This document shows, in pieces, positions 42,129 through 52,738 of a stretch of DNA of 64,000 nt. Positions within the stretch are counted from its first letter, which is position 1; the number at the start of each line of letters is the position of its first letter. Where the stretch lies: positions 682,001-746,000 of the forward strand of contig NZ_JAIUZI010000001.1 of NCBI RefSeq assembly GCF_020171285.1, given 5' to 3'. Origin of the DNA: Seohaeicola saemankumensis. GTDB taxonomy: Bacteria; Pseudomonadota; Alphaproteobacteria; Rhodobacterales; Rhodobacteraceae. The notes under the pieces were generated by a model. It made no database searches and was not told the DNA's origin. It was given only the letters and a program-made list of their open reading frames with translations. The translations under genes were made by a program, and so were the position numbers.

Positions 42129-42835
42129 CGCAGACGCCCAGCTTTCCGCCGCTGCTGCAAGGCGAGGCGGTGAGCGGCTCAACCGATCCGTTCGACAAGG
42201 CCCGCGCGCTGGCCGCGCTGGGCTGTGACGGCGGTACGGTGGTCTATGCCCCGCAGATGGACCGGCTGCGGGCGGCGATGGTCTTTGCCCCCGATGTGGC
42301 GCTGGAAGAGGCGATGGCGATGCTGCCGGTCTGCGGTATCGGGTTCCAGAACGCGCTGGGGGCGCTGGCGCCGCCGGAAGTGGCGGTGCACCTGAGCTGG
42401 GACGGGGCGATCTTTGTCAACGGCGCGCGCTGCGGCGGGCTGCGCGCTGCGGCCTCGGGTCGCGCCCCCGACCAGGTGCCGGACTGGCTGGTGATCGGGC
42501 TCGACGTGCCGTTCCTGTGGTCGGACGCGGCGCCGGGGGAAAACCCGGGCGTGACGGTTCTGGCCGAGGAGGGGTGCGCCGAACTGACCCCGCCGCAGGT
42601 GCTGGAGGCCTGGGCGCGTCACACGCTGGTCTGGATCAACCGCTGGGACGACGAAGGCAACGGCCCGGTCCACGCCGAATGGATGGGGTTGCTGCGCGAT
42701 GTCGGCGAAAAGATCGACCAGGGCGGGCATGACGGCACCTTTCTGGGCGTCGACGACCGGTTCGGCATGCTGATCCGCGATTCCGAAACAACCCATCTGC
42801 TTCCCATGTCCAGCCTGCTGCAGGAGACGCCATGA
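42125..42835 (+). CDS. Biotin/lipoate protein ligase-like protein with DUF4444
   Basis: 236 residues. The first ~165 resemble a biotin/lipoate A/B ligase fold ('GGTVVYAPQMDRLRAAMVFAPDVALEEAM', 'LGALAPPEVAVHLSWDGAIFVNGARCGGLR', 'DWLVIGLDVPF'), the rest a DUF4444 domain ('HTLVWINRWDDEGNGPVHAEWMGLLRDVGE'). The acyl-transfer lysine loop of true ligases (K-x-G/GG-x-R-H) is not obvious, so activity may be altered. Substrate unknown. Coupled by ATGA overlaps to mrp and to the DUF6505 gene. Confidence 0.8.
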
Positions 42836-43311
42836 ACCTCGCCCGTGCCATCCACTTTGACGAAAGCGATATGCAGGTGTTTCATTCCCCCGCCCGGACC
42901 GGGGAATGGTGCATCGCGGGCGGTTTCGAATTTTCGAACTGGACCGAGGCCGATCTGGCCGGAAAGGCACGTCAGGCCTTTGCCAATGGCTGGCTCGGGG
43001 TCGAGACCTTTGGCCGGGTCACCTTTGTCGCCGTTACCCCGGTGACGCCCGCCGAACGGGCGGAGCTGGAAACCGCGCTGGCGCATCATTTTGTGACGCT
43101 TTACGGCGCCCCTTCGGTCGAGGCCGCGCGCGGTGTCGCCGCCGGGGAAATCGCCCATATGGCCGAATTGTGCGATGGCCACGACATGAACACCCTGCTG
43201 ACGGTCGCGCGGGAGCTGACCCCGGCCGGTGTCCGCGAAAGCTTTCGCGTGATCGAGGCCGATGCCGCCGATCTGGAACAGCTGGCGGTGCATTTCGACC
43301 CCGACGCCTGA
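42832..43311 (+). CDS. DUF6505 family protein
   Basis: 159-residue cytosolic protein: 'LARAIHFDESDMQVFHSPARTGEWCIAGGFEF', 'GKARQAFANGWLGVETFGRVTFVAV', 'LAHHFVTLYGAPSVEAAR' and 'EIAHMAELCDGHDMNTLLTVARE'. I recognise it as the family found with the DUF4444 ligase-like protein in Rhodobacterales and relatives; function unknown. It is the last of the DUF6494-mrp-ligase-DUF6505 set, all joined by 4-nt overlaps. Confidence 0.78.
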   Translation: MNLARAIHFDESDMQVFHSPARTGEWCIAGGFEFSNWTEADLAGKARQAFANGWLGVETFGRVTFVAVTPVTPAERAELETALAHHFVTLYGAPSVEAARGVAAGEIAHMAELCDGHDMNTLLTVARELTPAGVRESFRVIEADAADLEQLAVHFDPDA

Positions 43312-43410: not shown

Positions 43411-43911
43411 TCACTCCAGCCCGGCAAAGCCGCCGTATTGTCCGCGTTTGAACATCAGCCCCAGGCCGGGCCGGTGGGTGGCGTGCAGGACTTCGCCCAC
43501 GACGATGGAGTGATCGCCCCCGTCATGCACGGCGCGCGCGACGCAGTCGAACCGCGCCAGGCAACCGTCCAGATGCGGGACGCCATCCTGACCGGCGTGC
43601 CAGTTGACATGATCGAACCCGTTGCCGGTGCGGGAAAAATGCACGGCCAGTTCCTGCTGCGTTTCGCCCATGACGTGAATGGCATAGCGCGGTGCGGCGG
43701 CGAACACTGGGTGCCGGGCCGAGGCCTTGGCCGGGCACCACAGCACCAGCGGCGGATCGAGCGAGACAGAGGCGAAGGAATTCACCGTCATGCCCAGCGG
43801 CTGATCCTCGTGCAGGGTGGTGACCACGGTCACGCCGGTGCCATAGCATCCCAGCGCGTCGCGAAAGGCGCGGATCGTCTCGGGTCCGGGTTTGAAGCTT
43901 GAAACAGACAT
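43411..43911 (-). CDS. Flavin reductase-like (FMN-binding split barrel) protein
   Basis: 166 residues with the flavin reductase fold: 'FRDALGCYGTGVTVVTTLHEDQPLGMTVNSFASVSLDPPLVLWCP' is the FMN phosphate and isoalloxazine region, followed by 'YAIHVMGETQQELAVHFSR' and 'HSIVVGEVLHATH'. It would reduce FMN or FAD with NAD(P)H for a partner monooxygenase or act as a stand-alone diflavin reductase; no monooxygenase gene is adjacent. ATG 43911 is the start closest to the family N-terminus; the frame extends 57 nt further. Convergent with DUF6505. Confidence 0.9.
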   Translation of the reverse strand: MSVSSFKPGPETIRAFRDALGCYGTGVTVVTTLHEDQPLGMTVNSFASVSLDPPLVLWCPAKASARHPVFAAAPRYAIHVMGETQQELAVHFSRTGNGFDHVNWHAGQDGVPHLDGCLARFDCVARAVHDGGDHSIVVGEVLHATHRPGLGLMFKRGQYGGFAGLE

Positions 43912-43983
43912 ATCACGTGCGCCTTTGCATCCGGACCTCAGGTGCCACGGCTGGCGCCGATTGTCCATGCCCGCCCGGCCGGC

Positions 43984-45393
43984 TCAGTTCAGGTCCTCGA
44001 GCAGGCGGCCGTGTTTGCGGGTCTCGGCGATGACGTCTCCGAATGTGCGCATGCCGCGCGCCTCGAGCATCGGCAGCATCTTGCACAGAACTTCCGCCGT
44101 CGCCTGCGCATCGCCCAGTGCCGTATGGCGCAAATGGGCGGGGATGGTCACCCCCAGCCGGTCGCAGAGCGCGTCGAGCGTATGGGTTTCACCGGCCCCG
44201 AAGACCACCGCCGACAGCAGCACGGTATCGAGGATCGGGTGTTCCCATTCGACCCCCATCCGGCCCGCGTGGCGGCGCAGAAAGGCCATGTCGAATGGCG
44301 CGTTATGGGCAACAATGACGGCATTCGAGGCGAATCTGTGAAAGCTCCGCCCGGCCTCGGCGATGTCGGGCGCGCCGGCCACCATGGCGTCGCTGACGCC
44401 GTGGACCTTGGTCGATCCCGGCGGGATCGGCATGCCGGGGTTGACCAGAGTGTCCAGAACCTCGCCTTCGATGATGCGCCCGCGCAGCACCCGCACGGCG
44501 CCGATCTGCACCACCTCGTCCTTGTGCGGCAGCAGGCCGGTTGTTTCCGTATCAAAGACGACAAAGACGAGATCGCTCAGCGCGCGGACCTCGAAGGCGG
44601 CATCGCCGGAGGTTTCCAGCAGGTCGAAGTCGTAGACCAGCGGGCGGGCAGCCTCGGGGGCGATCTGGGCCTCGGCGTCGTCAAAGATGAGCATGTAGCC
44701 AGGCGCGTCGCCCAGCGGTTTCATCCGGGCGCTGTAGCTTTGCGCCTCATCGGCGCTTTGGGCGGTGAAACTCACCTCCAGACCGCTGCGCGCCAGCTTG
44801 CCATAGGCGGCCTCGACCGCCTCGCGCTGCAGGTAATCGAACAGCGAGGCGTTCAGCCGGGGATGGGCGATCTGCGCCAGAACACCCGCGGCCTGCCCGT
44901 CGTAAAGCACAATCTGATGGCTGGGGTTGACGATGACCATGGCCATGGGGATTTCGGTCAAAAGCGCGGTCAGCCGCTCCTTCTCGGCGGCCAGGCGCGC
45001 GGTTTGCGCGGCCACCGCCTCGGCGGTGTTCATCGTCGACTCGCTGAGTTGCCCGGTTACTGCGGCGGCGGCAGGGGCGAGGTCGCCGAGGTAGCGGGCG
45101 GCATGCAGGTCGAGTTCGCCGGTGACCCCGGCATGGGCACGGGCGCGCATCTGGGCGGCCAGCCGTTCGATCGGGCGCGCCACGTTCTCGTCGAACAGCA
45201 GCCAGACCCCGGCGGTCAGCGCCACCACGGCAAAGAGGCTGAGCGCGCCGGAGAAGACGAAGGCATCGAGGATCGCCGGATCGCCGGCGCGGCGGTACCC
45301 GGCATAGAGCGACAGTCCGATCACGGCGGCCCCACCCAGCGCCAGCAGGCAGAAGAACAGGAAGATCCGCAGTCGCAGGCTCAGGTGTTTCAT
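43984..45393 (-). CDS. Membrane-anchored HAMP-PAS-DEDDh exonuclease
   Basis: 469 residues. Two membrane helices (about 10-30 and 46-67), a HAMP-like segment (about 68-120, 'ENVARPIERLAAQM'), a coiled linker and PAS-like domain (about 135-240, 'LTALLTEIPMAMVIVNPSHQIVLYDGQ'), then a DnaQ-type 3'-5' exonuclease (about 272-445) with catalytic Asp281, Glu283 ('VFDTETTG'), Asp368 ('HNAPFDMAFL'), His423 and Asp428 ('HTALGDAQ'). It looks like a histidine-kinase front end with an exonuclease in place of the kinase. ATG 45393 is preferred over GTG 45399 for ribosome spacing; the GTG overlaps the upstream stop. Similar nucleases sit near acetate symporter genes in Pseudomonas. Confidence 0.9.
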   Translation of the reverse strand: MKHLSLRLRIFLFFCLLALGGAAVIGLSLYAGYRRAGDPAILDAFVFSGALSLFAVVALTAGVWLLFDENVARPIERLAAQMRARAHAGVTGELDLHAARYLGDLAPAAAAVTGQLSESTMNTAEAVAAQTARLAAEKERLTALLTEIPMAMVIVNPSHQIVLYDGQAAGVLAQIAHPRLNASLFDYLQREAVEAAYGKLARSGLEVSFTAQSADEAQSYSARMKPLGDAPGYMLIFDDAEAQIAPEAARPLVYDFDLLETSGDAAFEVRALSDLVFVVFDTETTGLLPHKDEVVQIGAVRVLRGRIIEGEVLDTLVNPGMPIPPGSTKVHGVSDAMVAGAPDIAEAGRSFHRFASNAVIVAHNAPFDMAFLRRHAGRMGVEWEHPILDTVLLSAVVFGAGETHTLDALCDRLGVTIPAHLRHTALGDAQATAEVLCKMLPMLEARGMRTFGDVIAETRKHGRLLEDLN

Positions 45394-45395
45394 CG

Positions 45396-45917
45396 TCACG
45401 CCCCCTCGCAGACCGCGACCAGCACGGCATCGTCCGCCGCGACGCTGACCCAGTCGGCGTCGGAGACCGCGCCGCGCGCGTCATAGGTGGCCCCGTCGGC
45501 GAGGCTGGCGCGGCGCAGGCCGTCGCAATCCACCAGGATCGGTATCTTGTTCACGGGCGCCCAGCGGCCAAAGAAATAGAGATCGGCCATGGTCTGGCCC
45601 GGCACGTCGGGGTTTTGCCGCAGGCTGGCCTCATCCAGCGCGGCAAACCGGTCGATATAGGGCGATACCATGGTCCAGGGCCGGTAAAAGCTGCGGTTTT
45701 CCACGGTTTCGATCACCACGACGCCCTCGGGCAGGCTTGCCCTGGTGCGCCCGTACCAGCCATATTCGCTGGTAATGGTCATGGCGATCATCGCCAGGCC
45801 GGCCACCACCGGCGCCGTCCAGCGCGGCAGCCGCCCGCCGGTTAGCTTGTTGGCCAGCATCACCAGCCCGGCGGCGGCGATACCGGCAAAGACCGTTCCG
45901 ATCAGCTCCAGAAACAT
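45396..45917 (-). CDS. Membrane protein of unknown function
   Basis: 173 residues with two predicted N-terminal helices (about 4-24 and 35-52, 'LIGTVFAGIAAAGLVMLANKL', 'TAPVVAGLAMIAMTITSEYGW') and a ~115-residue soluble, probably periplasmic, C-terminal part ('LPEGVVVIETVENRSFYRPWTMVSPYIDRFAALD'). I do not recognise the family beyond its regular place next to this kind of exonuclease gene. Its stop overlaps the alternative GTG of the exonuclease, so the two are likely co-translated. Confidence 0.75.
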   Translation of the reverse strand: MFLELIGTVFAGIAAAGLVMLANKLTGGRLPRWTAPVVAGLAMIAMTITSEYGWYGRTRASLPEGVVVIETVENRSFYRPWTMVSPYIDRFAALDEASLRQNPDVPGQTMADLYFFGRWAPVNKIPILVDCDGLRRASLADGATYDARGAVSDADWVSVAADDAVLVAVCEGA

Positions 45918-45999: not shown

Positions 46000-47823
46000 T
46001 CAGCTCAACATGCCCTTGCCGTGGCCCACAGCCGCCTGCAGCGTCTTTACCACGACGAAGGCGTCGCGCAGATGACTTCGCTCAAAGTCCGACAGGTCGG
46101 TGGGGGCCAGGAAGTTGTCCGGCTTGGCGCCTGATTTCACAAGCGAAACCTGATGTTCCAGCCGGGTTTCGGCGATCAGGTCGTAGGCGTCCAGCAGGTC
46201 GCGCGCGCCCGAGGGGCTGAGGGTGCCGGCGGCCTGCGCGGCCTGCAGCCGGGCGCGGGTGTTGGCCTCGGTCAGCTGTCCCTGCAGGGTATAGATCCGC
46301 GCCAGGTCGACCACCGGCACCACGCCGTTGGCCTTCATGTCCAGCGTGTTGCGATGTTCGCCCGAGCGGATGGTGGCAAAGCCGCGCAGGAGGCCGAGCG
46401 GCGGCGTGTGTTTCAGCGAGTTCGAGATCATGTGCGCCACGAAGATCGAATTCTTGCTGGCCGCCTTCAGCGTGTCGGCCTGCAGCCCGGTGAACAGGCT
46501 CTTGTCGCCGCCGATGGGCCGCAGGTCGAACATGACGCTGGCCAGCATCTGTGCCTCGGGGTTGGGCTTGGCGATCCAGCCCGCGAAATACTCGCGCCAG
46601 ACGCGCACCGGCTGGCACCAGCGGTCCGCCGTCGCCATCATGTCGCCGGGGCAGTAGAAATAGCCGCAGGCGTCGAGCCCGTCGCAGACAAAGCGCGCGA
46701 GGTCGCGGAAATAGGGCATCTGTTCGCCTGTCACGTCGTCGTGCAGGAACAGGCAGTTGTCCTGATCGCTGACACCGGTCTGTTCCTGCCGGCCCTGGCT
46801 GCCGCAGGCAAGCCAGAGGTAGGGCACCGGCGGCGGACCCAGTTTTGCCTCGGCCAGCGCCAGCAGGCGGCGGGTGCAGGTGTCGGCGATGTCGGTGATC
46901 AGGCGGGTCACGATCTCGTGCCGGTTGCCGCCAGCGACCAGTTGCACCAGCAGTTGCGGGATCTCGGCGGTGACCTTGGCCATCTCCTCGGCGGTGTCCG
47001 CCTTGGCGATGCGGCTGACCATCTCGGCGGAACTAACCGCCTGGAACCGGGTCAGGTCGGTCTGGGTGACGATGCCGACCAGCTGGCCGGCCTTGACCAC
47101 GGGCACGTGGCCGATGCGGTGTTCCATCATCGCGTGCAACACGTCGGAGCCGATGGCGGCGGGCGACAGGGTCAGCGGATCGCGGGTCATCACCTGCGCG
47201 ATCGGCGTGGTGGGGGGCAGGGCGTCGGCCACGACCTTGCCCGACAGGTCGCGCACGGTGACGATACCGGTCAGCGCGTCGCCGTCGATGACGCAGACCG
47301 AGGAGATCCGGTTGTCGCGCATCAGGGTCGCGGCCTGTTGCACGGTGGCGTCCACGGCGCAGGTCACCGGGGCCGGCGCCATGAAGCTTTCGACCCGCGT
47401 GGTGGCCAGATCGCTGCCGCGCGGGGCGTCGCCGCGTCGGCGGTCAAAGAACCGCGCCACCTTGGGCTGGCGGGCCATCAGCGCGTAGAAGGAGGGCTTG
47501 GGCAGCATCAGCAGCAGGCTGTCCTGAACCGCGCGGGCCGAGGTCAGCGCCTTGCCCTGGCGGGTCAGCCCGCGTTCGCCGAAGGAGTTGCGCGGGCCGA
47601 GGATTGACAGCGGCGCGCCGTTCTCGTCGTCGATATGCACCTCGCCGGTGTGGATCAGGTAGAGCCCCTCGAGCTCTTCCCCGAGGGCATAGACCGGAGC
47701 GCCGGCGGCGACGTCGACCATCTTGAACTTGGGCAGGAGGCCGTCCAGCTCGCTCGCCTCGAGGCTGTCGTAGGGGTGAACGGACCGCAGGAAGCGGGTC
47801 AGGTCGGCTGGGGAAAGTGGCAT
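46000..47823 (-). CDS. cNMP-binding/CBS/DUF294 nucleotidyltransferase-like protein
   Basis: 607 residues. Order: cyclic-nucleotide-binding domain (about 10-125), two CBS domains (about 145-200 and 207-262), DUF294 nucleotidyltransferase-like domain (about 290-430, with 'ACGSQGRQEQTG', Gly341-Ser342, and the acidic pair Asp353/Asp355 in 'SDQDN'), and a DUF294 C-terminal helical domain (about 440-590). The G-S...D-x-D pattern is that of active nucleotidyltransferases such as GlnD, so it may nucleotidylate a protein or metabolite under control of bound nucleotides. Partner not known. It lies beside the SSS symporter and exonuclease genes. Confidence 0.92.
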   Translation of the reverse strand: MPLSPADLTRFLRSVHPYDSLEASELDGLLPKFKMVDVAAGAPVYALGEELEGLYLIHTGEVHIDDENGAPLSILGPRNSFGERGLTRQGKALTSARAVQDSLLLMLPKPSFYALMARQPKVARFFDRRRGDAPRGSDLATTRVESFMAPAPVTCAVDATVQQAATLMRDNRISSVCVIDGDALTGIVTVRDLSGKVVADALPPTTPIAQVMTRDPLTLSPAAIGSDVLHAMMEHRIGHVPVVKAGQLVGIVTQTDLTRFQAVSSAEMVSRIAKADTAEEMAKVTAEIPQLLVQLVAGGNRHEIVTRLITDIADTCTRRLLALAEAKLGPPPVPYLWLACGSQGRQEQTGVSDQDNCLFLHDDVTGEQMPYFRDLARFVCDGLDACGYFYCPGDMMATADRWCQPVRVWREYFAGWIAKPNPEAQMLASVMFDLRPIGGDKSLFTGLQADTLKAASKNSIFVAHMISNSLKHTPPLGLLRGFATIRSGEHRNTLDMKANGVVPVVDLARIYTLQGQLTEANTRARLQAAQAAGTLSPSGARDLLDAYDLIAETRLEHQVSLVKSGAKPDNFLAPTDLSDFERSHLRDAFVVVKTLQAAVGHGKGMLS

Positions 47824-47885
47824 GTCACACCGGCAGTATCGGGAAATGAAAGATCCCGCCCAGATTGCGCTGGGCGGGACCGATG

Positions 47886-47920
47886 TAAAAGAGGGCGGGC
47901 CGTCGCAGGGGGGACGGCCC
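47886..47920 (-). terminator. Terminator after the symporter gene
   Basis: On the minus strand a GGGCCGTC/GACGGCCC stem (47897-47920) is followed by GCCCTCTTTT. A second hairpin TCCCGCCCAG-N6-CTGGGCGGGA (47854-47879) follows at once, ending in TCTTT. The two together separate the symporter from the DUF294 gene. Confidence 0.7.
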
Positions 47921-47931
47921 GGCCATGTCGG

Positions 47932-49716
47932 TTAGTGGTCCTGGGCGGCACCGGCGCCGCGCGGGATCCGGACGCTTTCGACCAGGTCCTTGATTTCCTG
48001 CGGGGTTTCCTTGGTCATGCCGGCCACCAGGTAGGCGACACCGAAGTTGACCATGGCACCGACCGCACCGAAGGAGGTCGACTTGATGGTTCCCAGCAGC
48101 GGGTCCGCATCCGTGAAGGAGTTGGTGCCCGGGATGAAGAGCCAGCCCTTGTGCAGGAAGATGTAGACCAGCGTCACACCCAGACCGGCCAGCATGCCGG
48201 CCACGGCGCCCGTGTTGTTGATCTTGGTCGAGAAGATCCCCATCATCAGCGCCGGGAAGATCGAGGCCGCCGCCAGACCGAAGGCCAGCGCCACCGTCTG
48301 GGCGGCAAAGCCCGGCGGGTTCAGACCCAGGTAGGTTGCGACACCGATGGCCACGGCCATGGCGATACGCGCCGACAGCAGTTCGCCTTTTTCCGAGATG
48401 CTCGGGTTGATCGAACCCTTGATCAGGTCGTGGGACACGGCAGACGAGATCGCCAGCAGCAGGCCCGCAGCGGTCGACAGCGCGGCGGCGAGACCACCGG
48501 CAGCGACCAGACCAATCACCCAACCCGGCAGGTTGGCGATTTCGGGGTTGGCCAGCACCAGGATGTCACGGTTGAAGTTGGTCAGCTCGTTGCCTTCCCA
48601 CCCGTTTTCCGCGGCTTTCGCCTGCATCCCGGCATCCTTGTCGTTGTAGTACTGGATCTTGCCGTCGCCGTTCTTGTCTTCCCAGCCCAGCAGACCGGTT
48701 TTCTGCCAGGTGGCCATCCAGTCATAGCGGGCGTCGTTTTCGATCTGCTCGAGCGAGACAGCCTCGGCGTCGGTGCCATTGGGCCAGAACATGTCGGTGA
48801 TGTTCAGGCGGGCCATGGCGCCCACGGCGGGAGCGGTCAGGTACAGCAGCGCGATGAAGACCAGCGCCCAGCCAGCGGACCAGCGGGCATCCGCCACGCG
48901 CGGCACGGTGAAGAAGCGCATGATGACGTGCGGCAGACCAGCGGTACCGATCATCAGCGACAGGGTGAACAGAACCATGTTCAGCGTGTCGGCGTGATGC
49001 GCGGTGTATTCGGCAAAGCCCAGTTCGGCCACGATGGAGTCCAGCTTGGCCAGCAGCGGCTCGCCGGATGCGACGTGATCGCCGAAGAGACCCAGCGCCG
49101 GGATCGGGTTGCCGGTCAGCTGCAGCGAGATGAAGATGGCCGGGATGGTGTAGGCCATGATCAGCACGCAATACTGCGCCACCTGGGTGTAGGTCACGCC
49201 CTTCATGCCGCCGAACACGGCGTAGGCAAAGACCACACAGGCGCCGATCAGCAGGCCGGCGGTGTTGGACACTTCGAGGAAGCGGCCAAAGGCCACGCCG
49301 ACGCCGGTCATCTGGCCGATCACGTAGGTGGTCGAGGCGACGATCAGGCAGATCACGGCCACGATGCGAGCGGTCGGGCTGTAGAAACGGTCGCCGATGA
49401 ATTCCGACACGGTGAACTTGCCGAACTTGCGCAGGTAGGGGGCAAGCAGCAGCGCCAGCAGCACGTAGCCACCGGTCCAGCCCATCAGGAAGCTGGAGTT
49501 GTCGTAGCCGGTAAAGGCGATGAGGCCGGCCATCGAGATGAACGAGGCCGCCGACATCCAGTCAGCCGCTGTCGCCATACCGTTGGTGACCGGGTGAACG
49601 CCGCGACCGGCGGCGTAGAATTCCGATGTGGAACCCGCACGGGCCCAGATCGCGATGCCGATGTAGAGCGCAAAGGAGGCGCCCACAAACAGCAGGTTGA
49701 TGGTAAACTGATCCAT
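47932..49716 (-). CDS. Sodium:solute symporter family permease (acetate/ActP-like)
   Basis: 594 residues, about 13 membrane helices. SSS-family landmarks: 'FYAAGRGVHPVTNGMATAADWMSAASFISMAGLIAFTGYD', 'LRKFGKFTVSEFIGDRFYSPTARIVA', 'GGMKGVTYTQVAQYCVLI', 'LMIGTAGLPHVIMRFFTV', 'GGLAAALSTAAGLLLAISSAVSHDL'. An extra ~80-residue soluble loop (about residues 320-395) carries a calcium-loop-like 'DKNGDGKIQ'. Paired with a DUF4212 subunit and close to acs, it most likely imports acetate or other short carboxylates with sodium. Terminators flank the DUF4212-symporter pair. Confidence 0.93.
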   Translation of the reverse strand: MDQFTINLLFVGASFALYIGIAIWARAGSTSEFYAAGRGVHPVTNGMATAADWMSAASFISMAGLIAFTGYDNSSFLMGWTGGYVLLALLLAPYLRKFGKFTVSEFIGDRFYSPTARIVAVICLIVASTTYVIGQMTGVGVAFGRFLEVSNTAGLLIGACVVFAYAVFGGMKGVTYTQVAQYCVLIMAYTIPAIFISLQLTGNPIPALGLFGDHVASGEPLLAKLDSIVAELGFAEYTAHHADTLNMVLFTLSLMIGTAGLPHVIMRFFTVPRVADARWSAGWALVFIALLYLTAPAVGAMARLNITDMFWPNGTDAEAVSLEQIENDARYDWMATWQKTGLLGWEDKNGDGKIQYYNDKDAGMQAKAAENGWEGNELTNFNRDILVLANPEIANLPGWVIGLVAAGGLAAALSTAAGLLLAISSAVSHDLIKGSINPSISEKGELLSARIAMAVAIGVATYLGLNPPGFAAQTVALAFGLAAASIFPALMMGIFSTKINNTGAVAGMLAGLGVTLVYIFLHKGWLFIPGTNSFTDADPLLGTIKSTSFGAVGAMVNFGVAYLVAGMTKETPQEIKDLVESVRIPRGAGAAQDH

Positions 49717-49731: not shown

Positions 49732-50016
49732 TTATTCTTCTTCAACGCCGAATTCGGCGTCGAGCTTGTTCATCCGCCAGGCGTAGAAAAAGATCAGCGC
49801 CAGGAACACGATGATCGAGCCTTGCTGGGCAAACCAGAAGCCGAGATCGGTGCCGCCGACGGCGATGCCGGACAGCATGGGGCGCAGCAGGATGCCGAAC
49901 CCGAAAGAGACCAGCGCCCAGATGACGAGGCTGATCAGAATGATGCGCACGTTTGCCTGCCAGTAGCCCTTGTCGGCTTCGGCAGTGGACGAGGCACTAG
50001 TAGATTGGTCCGCCAT
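49732..50016 (-). CDS. DUF4212 small membrane subunit of the symporter
   Basis: 94 residues with two membrane helices (about 26-46 and 63-83: 'IILISLVIWALVSFGFGILL', 'FWFAQQGSIIVFLALIFFYAWRMNKLD'). DUF4212 proteins precede SSS symporters such as this as YjcH (DUF485) precedes ActP, and are thought to be accessory subunits. Ends 15 nt before the symporter start. Confidence 0.92.
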   Translation of the reverse strand: MADQSTSASSTAEADKGYWQANVRIILISLVIWALVSFGFGILLRPMLSGIAVGGTDLGFWFAQQGSIIVFLALIFFYAWRMNKLDAEFGVEEE

Positions 50017-50079: not shown

Positions 50080-50766
50080 TTACTTCATCGCCTGTTCGAC
50101 GATTCCGGCGAGCGCGCCTGCAATGGTGTCGATTTCGCCCATGGCGTCGACCGATTGCAGAACACCCTTGTCCTTGTAGTACGCGATCAGCGGGGCGGTC
50201 TGGTCGTGGTAGGCGACCAGGCGGCTGCTGACGGTTTCCGCGTTGTCGTCGGCGCGCCGCTTCATCTCGGTGCCGCCGCATTTGTCGCAGACGCCATCCC
50301 TGGCGGGCTGCTTGAAGCTGTCGTGGTAGCCTTCGCCGCAATTGCCGCAGGTGTAGCGCCCGGAAATCCGGGTCACCATGGCGGCGTCATCGACTTCGAG
50401 GCTGACGGCGGCGCTGATCTTCTGGCCGGTTTCGGCCAGAAGGGTGTCGAGCGCCTGCGCCTGCACTGTGGTGCGCGGGAAGCCATCGAGGATCACGCCT
50501 TTGGCGCAGTCCGGTTCGGCCAGACGGTCGCGCAGGATGTTGATCACGATTTCATCGCTGACCAGGTCGCCCGCTTCCATCACCGCCTTGGCGGCTTTGC
50601 CCGCCTCGGTTCCGGCGGCGACGGCCGCGCGCAGCAGGTCGCCGGTGGAAAGTTGCACCAGGCCGAACTTCTCTTCCAGCATCCGCGCCTGGGTGCCCTT
50701 GCCGGCGCCCGGAGGCCCCAGCAGGATCAGCACGGCGGGGGTTGTCATGACTGCGGTGTCCATCAT
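50080..50766 (-). CDS. adk: Adenylate kinase (zinc-LID type)
   Basis: 228 residues. P-loop 'GPPGAGKGT', NMP-binding 'LSTGDLLRAAV', 'DGFPRTTVQA', and a long LID with four cysteines ('CGNCGEGYH...CDKCGG') that should bind structural zinc. Converts AMP + ATP to 2 ADP. It starts 7 nt after the acs stop; this pairing makes sense because acetyl-CoA synthetase releases AMP. Start taken as ATG 50766 with GGGGG just upstream; ATG 50748 is an alternative. It is probably not the only adk of the genome, since the housekeeping copy usually lies in the ribosomal protein operon. Confidence 0.93.
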   Translation of the reverse strand: MMDTAVMTTPAVLILLGPPGAGKGTQARMLEEKFGLVQLSTGDLLRAAVAAGTEAGKAAKAVMEAGDLVSDEIVINILRDRLAEPDCAKGVILDGFPRTTVQAQALDTLLAETGQKISAAVSLEVDDAAMVTRISGRYTCGNCGEGYHDSFKQPARDGVCDKCGGTEMKRRADDNAETVSSRLVAYHDQTAPLIAYYKDKGVLQSVDAMGEIDTIAGALAGIVEQAMK

Positions 50767-50773
50767 CGCCCCC

Positions 50774-52738
50774 TTACTTGCCCGCGCGGTTGGCGATCAG
50801 GTCGTCAACCACCGAAGGATCGGCCAGGGTCGAGGTATCGCCCAGCGAACCAAAGTCGTTCTCGGCGATCTTGCGCAGGATGCGGCGCATGATCTTGCCC
50901 GAGCGGGTTTTCGGCAGGCCCGGCGCCCACTGGATCACGTCGGGAGAAGCGATCGGGCCGATCTCGGTGCGGACCCAGGTGCGCAGCTCCTTGTAGAGAT
51001 CGTCGGAAGGCTCCACGCCGTTCATCAGGGTGACATAGCAATAGATGCCCTGGCCCTTGATGTCGTGCGGGTAACCGACCACGGCGGCCTCGGCCACGGC
51101 GGCATGCGCCACCAGTGCGCTTTCGACTTCGGCGGTGCCCATCCGGTGGCCGGAGACGTTGATCACGTCATCGACGCGGCCGGTGATCCAGAAATCGCCG
51201 TCTTCGTCCCGTTTGCAGCCGTCACCGGCAAAGTAGTAACCCTTGTAGTCGGAGAAATAGGTTTTCTCGAACCGTTCGTGGTCGCCCCAGACGGTGCGCA
51301 TCTGGCTGGGCCAGCTGTCGGCGATGCAGAGCACGCCCTCGGTCGGGTAGTCGTGGATCTCTTCGCCGGTGTGGGGGTCCAGAACCACGGCCTTGACGCC
51401 GAAGAAGGGTTTCATCGCCGAGCCCGGCTTCAGCCCGTGCGCGCCGGGCAGGGGGGTCATCATGTGACCGCCGGTTTCCGTCTGCCACCAAGTGTCGACG
51501 ATCGGGCATTTGCCCTTGCCCACGACCTCGTTGTACCAGTTCCAGGCCTCGGGGTTGATCGGTTCGCCCACAGTGCCGAGGGTGCGCAGATCGCTCAGGT
51601 CGCATTTTTCGACAAATTCGTTGCCCTGGCCCATCAGCGCGCGCAGCGCGGTCGGGGCGGTGTAGAACTGGTTCACCTTGTGCTTTTCGCAGACCTGCCA
51701 GAAGCGAGAGGCGTCGGGGTAGGTCGGCACGCCTTCGAACATCAGCGTGGTGGCGCCATTGGCCAGCGGGCCATAGACGATATAGCTGTGGCCGGTGACC
51801 CAGCCGACGTCAGCGGTACACCAGTAGATGTCGCCGTCGTGGTAATCAAAGGTGATCTCGTGCGTCATCGCGGCATAGACCAGGTAACCGCCGGTGCAGT
51901 GCACGACGCCCTTGGGCTGGCCGGTGGAGCCGGAGGTGTAGAGGATGAACAGCGGATCCTCGGCGTTCATCTCGGCGGGTTTGGAGTATTCGTCCGCTTC
52001 CAGCGCCATCTCGTTGTAGTCGAAGTCGCGGCCGTCGACCCAGGTGGTCTGGCCGCCGGTACGCTTGACCACCAGACATTTCACGGTGTCCTTGCAGTGC
52101 AGCAGAGCGGCGTCGGCGTTGGATTTCAGCGGGGTTTGACGACCGCCGCGCGGGGCGTAGTCGGCGGTGATCACCACCTTGGCGTCGGAACCGTTGATCC
52201 GGGCCGCCAGCGCGTCGGGGGAGAAGCCCGCAAACACGATGGAGTGGATGGCGCCGATCCGGGCGCAGGCCAGCATGGCATAGGCCGCTTCGGGGATCAT
52301 CGGGAGGTAGATGACCACGCGGTCGCCTTTGCGCACGCCCAGGTCTTCGAGGATGTTGGCCATCTTGCAGACCGAGGTGTGCAGCGCCTTGTAGGTGATG
52401 TGCTTGGCTTCCTCTTCCGGATCATCGGGTTCGAAGATGATCGCGGTCTGGTCGCCACGGGTCTCAAGGTGCCGGTCGATGCAGTTTGCCGAGACGTTCA
52501 GCGTGCCGTCCTCGAACCATTTGATGTCGATGTTGCCGGGCTGGAACGAGGTGTTCTTGACCTTGGTAAAGGGCTTGATCCAGTCGACCCGCTTGCCGTG
52601 TTCGCCCCAGAACGCTTCGGGGTCGGCGATGGATGCGGCGTACATCTCATCATATTTGGCGGCATCCACATGTGCACGGGCGACGACGTCTGCCGACGGG
52701 GGGTACACGGGGTTATCGGATTGAGCTTTTTCGGTCAT
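50774..52738 (-). CDS. acs: Acetyl-CoA synthetase
   Basis: 654-residue AMP-forming acetate-CoA ligase of normal length. Adenylation motifs in order: '[22 protein letters not shown]' (A3-like P-loop), '[10 protein letters not shown]' (A5), '[32 protein letters not shown]' (A7-A8) and the C-terminal '[15 protein letters not shown]', whose Lys is the catalytic and acetylation-regulated residue. The Trp in 'WWQTETGG' limits the acyl pocket to acetate. First gene of acs-adk; divergent from a TRAP dctP across 509 bp. Confidence 0.97.

What the first reader, a model, noticed from the sequence alone, without database searches (positions are those of the whole stretch)
43984..45393. Exonuclease with a sensor-kinase-like front end
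Two membrane helices, a HAMP-like segment, a PAS-like domain and a complete DEDDh exonuclease (Asp281, Glu283, Asp368, His423, Asp428) lie in one protein. The layout is that of a histidine kinase whose output domain is a nuclease. A membrane-tethered nuclease gated by a sensed signal could degrade RNA oligomers or a nucleotide second messenger.
Basis: partly seen in the sequence, partly recalled or inferred. Interest (0 to 1): 0.6.

Follow-up and report, generated by a model that had tools for sequence, protein, structure and literature searches.

The report
Membrane exonuclease descended from sensor kinase
This acetate-operon gene encodes a membrane-anchored nuclease that evolved from a dead bacterial sensor kinase fused to a nuclease, a combination found across the Pseudomonadota, usually beside its own response-regulator gene, that I found described nowhere and whose job is still unknown.

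Summary
A 469-residue protein on the minus strand (45393..43984) has two membrane helices, a HAMP-like segment, a PAS fold and a complete DEDDh exonuclease. The sensor-kinase resemblance is homology. Relatives in the same family and in distant Pseudomonadota are ~700 residues long and carry, between PAS and nuclease, a further ~210 residues whose only convincing matches among solved structures are histidine kinases (best E 5e-9; DivL 2e-7). The kinase is dead: the phospho-accepting His is never His (54/63 Glu/Asp) and the G1-box Asp is Trp (63/66). A one-domain response-regulator gene sits directly upstream in 50/52 loci that retain the helical docking (DHp) domain and in 0/128 that lack it, the window included. 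On a tree this co-loss recurs (6 supported pairs, p about 0.03). The window protein is a trimmed descendant. Its operon (acs-adk-DUF4212-symporter-DUF294-membrane protein-exonuclease) is conserved in its near relatives. The genome has a separate DnaQ, so this is not the proofreading subunit. Best reading: a membrane-tethered, signal-gated 3'-5' phosphodiesterase paired with the DUF294 nucleotidyltransferase. Substrate and signal are unknown. A probable P. putida counterpart affects growth on pyruvate, not acetate.

The parts
43984..45393 (-). gene of the membrane-anchored DEDDh exonuclease (469 aa, short form)
45298..45372 (-). transmembrane helix 1 (about residues 8-32)
   Evidence: hydropathy, helix 6-35 in model
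45193..45258 (-). transmembrane helix 2 (about residues 46-67); only a short loop between the helices, so no extracellular sensor domain
45040..45192 (-). HAMP-like segment (about residues 68-118), continuing into a coil to residue 146
   Evidence: family profile vs chemoreceptor TM2-HAMP E 3.4e-7; helices 44-88 and 96-146
44683..44958 (-). PAS domain (about residues 146-237)
   Evidence: fold order in model; PAS_4 above the Pfam cut-off in relative L006; PAS models in 19 of 23 long relatives
44644..44682 (-). junction (about residues 238-250) where long-form relatives carry the pseudo-kinase DHp + CA domains (about 210 aa)
44059..44568 (-). DEDDh exonuclease domain (residues 276-445; D281 E283 D368 H423 D428)
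45396..45917 (-). conserved small membrane protein of unknown family (173 aa), directly upstream of the exonuclease in all 80 short-form loci
46000..47823 (-). DUF294 protein: cNMP-binding + two CBS + nucleotidyltransferase (GSQGRQEQTGVSDQD motif) + DUF294_C
47932..49716 (-). sodium/solute symporter, VC_2705 family (TIGR03648)
49732..50016 (-). symporter small subunit (DUF4212 / TIGR03647)
50080..50766 (-). adenylate kinase (a second adk lies elsewhere in the genome)
50774..52738 (-). acetyl-CoA synthetase (acs)

Best explanation
SHOWN: the protein is the short form of a Pseudomonadota family built as membrane helices - HAMP - PAS - pseudo-histidine-kinase (DHp + CA) - DEDDh 3'-5' exonuclease. 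The kinase core has lost its phospho-His and the ATP-binding motif. A one-domain response regulator is encoded directly upstream in nearly all loci that keep the DHp domain and in none that lost it. The gene stands next to a DUF294 nucleotidyltransferase in nearly all loci and, in the window's family, in a conserved acs / acetate-type symporter operon. INFERRED: in the long form the dead DHp is a docking site through which the (phosphorylated) regulator controls the attached nuclease, as DivK~P is read by the pseudokinase DivL. In the short form of the window that input is gone, leaving membrane/HAMP/PAS control, perhaps with the 173-aa membrane partner. The nuclease works as a tethered, signal-gated 3'-5' phosphodiesterase on short RNA, a nucleotide signal, or a nucleotidyl mark laid by the neighbouring DUF294 enzyme, and so tunes the co-encoded carboxylate symporter/Acs pathway.
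For: Domains. Nuclease fold and intact site. Inserted region is a histidine-kinase core: its profile hits 9m08 4.8e-9, ZraS 5.1e-9, 5c93 3.6e-8, 4u7n 4.9e-8, DivL 1.8e-7, and HisKA matches 10 of 23 members at E up to 1, best 8.4e-5. Dead kinase: phosphoacceptor E 30, D 24, A 4, other 5, His 0 of 63; G1 Asp is W in 63 of 66. Regulator partner: 46/48 with clear DHp, 4/4 with weak DHp, 0/48 and 0/80 without; receiver Asp and Lys kept in all 50 (read from the alignment). The regulator orthologue is missing from whole short-form or eroded-DHp genomes: best hits 80-96 bits against 215-279 in long-form genomes. Recurrent co-loss: 6 supported independent pairs, same direction in 5.8 on average, p about 0.03; the window's clade of 35 short forms has support 100 and lies among long forms. 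DUF294 neighbour within 5 kb: 33/40 (phylum/class), 60/60 (family), 80/80. Published: the operon of PP_0354 (CBS) and PP_0353 (RNase_T) is an MxtR/ErdR target; the PP_0353 mutant and the actP-I mutant are both slow on pyruvate, the PP_0354 mutant is not (PMC9927547). DivL reads DivK~P through a disabled kinase core (PMC4211667).
Against: No biochemistry exists for any member. The substrate, the PAS ligand and any gating are unshown. Two long forms (L121, L182) have no adjacent regulator. The regulator-DHp mirror-tree signal (partial r 0.34) barely exceeds that for the CA domain (0.29), so docking on DHp is not independently shown. In P. putida, PP_0353 was dispensable on 20 mM acetate (PMC9927547). 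That PP_0353 is an orthologue was not tested by sequence. The short form exists without the regulator, so the regulator is not essential to the nuclease's role. The tree is a quick search; the careful one did not finish.
Confidence: 0.55

Rival explanations
1. Writer and eraser: the DUF294 nucleotidyltransferase attaches nucleotides to a target (protein or RNA 3' end) in the symporter/Acs pathway and inhibits it; the exonuclease removes them.
For: Near-constant adjacency of the two genes across the phylum; DUF294_C and GlnD/GlnE C-terminal domains are grouped together in PMC3710099; NTase motif kept in 163 of 176 neighbours by a loose pattern; in P. putida loss of the nuclease hurts on pyruvate while loss of the CBS protein does not, as expected if the nuclease relieves what the NTase imposes.
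Against: No modified target is known; DEDDh enzymes normally act on nucleic acid; the mutant pattern also fits independent roles; the double mutant was not reported in the sections read.
Confidence: 0.2
2. Housekeeping exonuclease with a membrane anchor: it degrades mRNA or nanoRNA constitutively near the membrane, and the front end only tethers and dimerises it.
For: The exonuclease domain is the only part kept in all forms, including one with two membrane helices only (L113/L127, L115/L128) and one of 265 aa without a recognisable front end (L116/L131). The P. putida authors proposed mRNA decay.
Against: HAMP-PAS and, in long forms, a pseudo-kinase with a dedicated regulator are kept over phylum-wide distances, which pure tethering would not need.
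Confidence: 0.25
3. DNA repair or proofreading exonuclease (DnaQ/epsilon-like).
For: Closest solved structures are the PolC exonuclease, epsilon and DinG; it passes the broad TIGR00573 epsilon-family cut-off (106.6 vs 71.5).
Against: Far below the equivalog cut-off for proteobacterial DnaQ (108.6 vs 222.7); the genome has a separate DnaQ next to coaE; membrane anchor and acetate operon.
Confidence: 0.05

Closest known systems
Pseudomonas putida PP_0353 / P. aeruginosa PA3232 nuclease beside the CBS protein and ActP (PMC9927547, PMC9765439)
   Same: RNase_T-type exonuclease in an operon with a CBS-domain protein; in P. aeruginosa next to the acetate/pyruvate-type symporter gene; controlled by MxtR/ErdR, which also controls acs.
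   Different: Described only as a putative RNase_T exonuclease; no membrane, HAMP, PAS or kinase part is mentioned. The sequence relation was not tested here.
DivL-DivK (Caulobacter pseudokinase and one-domain response regulator, PMC4211667)
   Same: Histidine-kinase core without kinase activity, with PAS domains and a one-domain regulator; the family profile hits the DivL structure at 1.8e-7.
   Different: To my knowledge DivL has no enzyme attached and its regulator is not encoded directly beside it; the window's short form has no kinase core at all.
GdpP/YybT (membrane-PAS-degenerate GGDEF-DHH/DHHA1 c-di-AMP phosphodiesterase; layout from general knowledge)
   Same: Same logic: membrane helices, PAS, a degenerate signalling domain, then a nuclease-superfamily phosphodiesterase.
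   Different: Different degenerate domain (kinase, not GGDEF) and unrelated catalytic domain (DEDDh, not DHH/DHHA1); substrate unknown.
CrbS/CrbR and MxtR/ErdR two-component systems controlling acs (PMC5436829)
   Same: Signalling by kinase-type proteins tied to acetate activation and symporters.
   Different: Active hybrid kinases with a symporter-like front end and a separate regulator; no nuclease.
DnaQ/epsilon, PolC exonuclease, RNase T, oligoribonuclease
   Same: DEDDh catalytic domain.
   Different: Soluble replication or RNA-turnover enzymes without a sensor front end.

Membership tests
DEDDh 3'-5' exonuclease (PF00929) | RNase_T fold with D-x-E, D, H-x(4)-D | tested here: met
   E 3.4e-34; D281 E283 D368 H423 D428; Foldseek to epsilon, PolC, RNase T
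DEDDh 3'-5' exonuclease (PF00929) | exonuclease activity | not testable with these tools
   no biochemistry
DNA polymerase III epsilon (DnaQ), proteobacterial equivalog | score above the TIGR01406 cut-off | tested here: not met
   108.6 vs 222.7 bits; separate DnaQ in the genome
Histidine kinase | HAMP and PAS front end | tested here: met
   family profile and model; not detected by Pfam in the single window sequence
Histidine kinase | DHp and CA domains present | tested here: not met
   absent in the window protein; present in long-form relatives
Histidine kinase | phospho-accepting His and G1-box Asp (in long forms) | tested here: not met
   0 of 63 His; 63 of 66 Trp in place of Asp
DivL-type pseudo-histidine kinase (long forms) | kinase core that binds a one-domain response regulator | tested here: inconclusive
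   core homologous and regulator gene co-occurs 50/52 vs 0/128; binding not testable, mirror tree weak
GdpP | DHH/DHHA1 catalytic domain | tested here: not met
   catalytic domain is RNase_T
PP_0353/PA3232 nuclease group | RNase_T gene next to a CBS-domain (here DUF294) gene and an acetate-type symporter | tested here: met
   context; literature
PP_0353/PA3232 nuclease group | orthology by sequence | not tested
   Pseudomonas sequences were not retrieved by name
Anti-phage defence (PADLOC DEDDh, PDC-S48) | defence-system gene context | tested here: not met
   PADLOC hits cover only the DEDDh domain; context is carboxylate metabolism

The most novel reading that the evidence does not exclude
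A two-component nuclease: a phylum-wide class of signalling proteins in which a dead histidine-kinase core, read by its own one-domain response regulator, switches an attached exonuclease that erases nucleotides placed by the neighbouring DUF294 transferase, so coupling carboxylate uptake to phospho-signalling; the window holds a version from which the kinase core and regulator have been cut out.
Probability: 0.2. Interest if true: 0.85.

Novelty: new variant of a known kind. Interest (0 to 1): 0.6.

Why it matters
Histidine kinases and their dead relatives are known to drive transcription, cyclases and phosphatases; a nuclease as the fused output was not described in any text found here. Relatives of this gene are likely to carry only a '3'-5' exonuclease' type name, which hides the pseudo-kinase in the long forms. 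The strict pairing of regulator and DHp domain gives a directly testable case of a response regulator controlling an enzyme through a pseudokinase, and the DUF294 neighbour offers a handle on two uncharacterised gene families that travel with acetate and pyruvate uptake.

Tried and rejected
Plus-strand reading of the same stretch (514-aa antisense ORF): rejected, the conserved frame is the minus one. Pfam on the window protein alone for HAMP/PAS/HisKA: nothing usable; family profiles were needed. Defence reading: PADLOC hits are generic DEDDh. The exonuclease-only tree had too little support, so a tree on front end + exonuclease columns, with the kinase region cut out, was used (the careful search did not finish). 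Mirror-tree test of regulator vs DHp: not decisive. Literature searches for a histidine kinase-exonuclease fusion found none; the library is open-access only, so absence there is weak evidence. No promoter-like site was found inside the gene cluster between the symporter and the exonuclease; a strong hairpin lies between the symporter and DUF294 genes, so DUF294-membrane protein-exonuclease may be a separate or attenuated transcript.

Full report
WHAT IS THERE. The gene lies on the minus strand, 45393 to 43984 (469 aa from ATG); its ATG follows the stop codon of the upstream gene by two bases. Pfam sees only the RNase_T exonuclease. The front end is too diverged for single-sequence Pfam, but holds at family level: a profile of 20 front ends matches chemoreceptor TM2-HAMP at 3.4e-7 and, more weakly, the HAMP of AF1503 and PAS domains of sensor kinases; a PAS model passes Pfam's cut-off in relative L006, and PAS models match 19 of 23 long relatives. 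AlphaFold on 51 relatives gives pLDDT 79, two membrane helices joined by a short loop, a coil, a PAS-type fold at 151-237 and a confident exonuclease at 276-445, nearest to PolC, epsilon, DinG and RNase T.

SURROUNDINGS. On the same strand upstream are acs, adk, DUF4212, a VC_2705-family symporter, a cNMP/CBS/DUF294 nucleotidyltransferase and a 173-aa membrane protein of no known family. Eighty relatives from named genomes, nearly all Rhodobacteraceae, have 57-82% identity and the same order wherever the contig reaches, apart from a few without adk or acs at that place. A gene for a housekeeping DnaQ lies elsewhere beside coaE.

THE LONG FORM. Five of the first relatives searched in the window's family have open frames of about 700 aa: the same front end, a further ~210 aa, then the same exonuclease. 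Full-length relatives of this kind exist in other families of the class and in other classes of the phylum. A profile of the extra region from 23 sequences was compared with all PDB sequences; every convincing hit is a histidine kinase (9m08 4.8e-9, ZraS 5.1e-9, 5c93 3.6e-8, 4u7n 4.9e-8, DivL 1.8e-7). Its DHp helix aligns the kinase motif H-E-x-R-x-P with E/D-x-x-R-x-P. Among 63 distinct sequences the phosphoacceptor is Glu 30, Asp 24, Ala 4, other 5, His 0, while the Arg is kept in 61 and the Pro in 53; the G1-box Asp is Trp in 63 of 66. The core is a pseudokinase, mostly with an acidic residue in place of the phospho-His.

THE RESPONSE REGULATOR. In long-form operons of the window's family a gene for a one-domain receiver (125-144 aa) lies between the 173-aa protein gene and the exonuclease gene, overlapping or abutting it; a similar gene lies directly upstream of long forms in distant families. 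Scored with profiles built here (partly from the same sequences), a regulator gene is adjacent in 46 of 48 loci with a clear DHp, 4 of 4 with a weak DHp, and 0 of 48 without DHp (nine of which keep the CA domain); it is also absent from all 80 short-form loci. The receiver Asp and Lys are kept in all 50. In whole-genome searches the regulator orthologue scores 215-279 bits in three long-form genomes and at most 96 bits (paralogue level) in seven short-form genomes and one with an eroded DHp, so it was lost, not moved. On a tree of front end + exonuclease columns the 35 short forms that include the window form one clade (support 100) among long forms of the same family; DHp changes 8 times, and in 6 supported independent pairs the regulator goes the same way in 5.8 on average (p about 0.03). 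This is what one expects if the regulator docks on the DHp, the normal regulator-binding surface of histidine kinases and the one used by DivK~P on the pseudokinase DivL (PMC4211667). The mirror-tree test did not separate DHp from CA clearly.

ARCHITECTURAL SERIES. Next to DUF294 genes one finds an exonuclease of 265 aa without recognisable front end (L131), exonuclease with two membrane helices (L127, L128), membrane-PAS-exonuclease without kinase core in distant families (L125, L126) and in the window's clade, CA-only forms, and the full pseudo-kinase form. DUF294 lies within 5 kb in 33 of 40 phylum/class loci, 60 of 60 family loci and 80 of 80 named loci. The constant pair is therefore DUF294 + exonuclease; the signalling front end is modular.

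MECHANISM. Shown: architecture, descent, dead kinase, regulator linkage, operon. From literature: in P. putida the nuclease PP_0353, in an operon with the CBS protein PP_0354 and under MxtR/ErdR, is dispensable on 20 mM acetate but needed for normal growth on pyruvate, like actP-I, while PP_0354 is not (PMC9927547); PA3232-PA3235 rise on propionate (PMC9765439). Inferred: the nuclease is a tethered, signal-gated 3'-5' phosphodiesterase; in long forms the regulator acts through the pseudo-kinase; in the window's form that input has been deleted and only membrane/HAMP/PAS control can remain. The substrate is open between nanoRNA, a nucleotide signal, mRNA, and a mark made by DUF294. The layout resembles GdpP (membrane, PAS, degenerate signalling domain, phosphodiesterase) with different parts (general knowledge, not tested).

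VERDICT. Observation confirmed; interpretation partly supported and extended. The parts are known kinds; their combination, and the regulator-pseudokinase-nuclease linkage, I found described nowhere in the searched library. Interest 0.6.

Noticed in passing
43411-43968 (-): A flavin-reductase-domain gene starts 15 bases after the exonuclease gene on the same strand and is kept there in about half of the short-form loci; possible last gene of the operon.
   Followed up: partly
50080-50766 (-): An adenylate kinase gene sits directly after acs; the genome has a second adk on another contig. Acs makes AMP, which Adk recycles, so this may be a dedicated copy.
   Followed up: partly
47852-47921 (-): Two GC-rich hairpins in the 108-base gap between the symporter and DUF294 genes, one followed by TTTCATTT; possible attenuation before the DUF294-membrane protein-exonuclease part.
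   Followed up: no
45396-45917 (-): Conserved 173-aa protein with hydrophobic N-terminal part matching no Pfam or NCBIfam model, directly upstream of the exonuclease (or of the regulator) in Rhodobacteraceae; a candidate sensory partner.
   Followed up: partly
42832-43311 (+): DUF6505 gene next to a biotin/lipoate-ligase-family gene, convergent with the operon; function unknown.
   Followed up: no
L121, L182: Two long forms with a clear DHp but no adjacent response-regulator gene; the partner may be encoded elsewhere.
   Followed up: no
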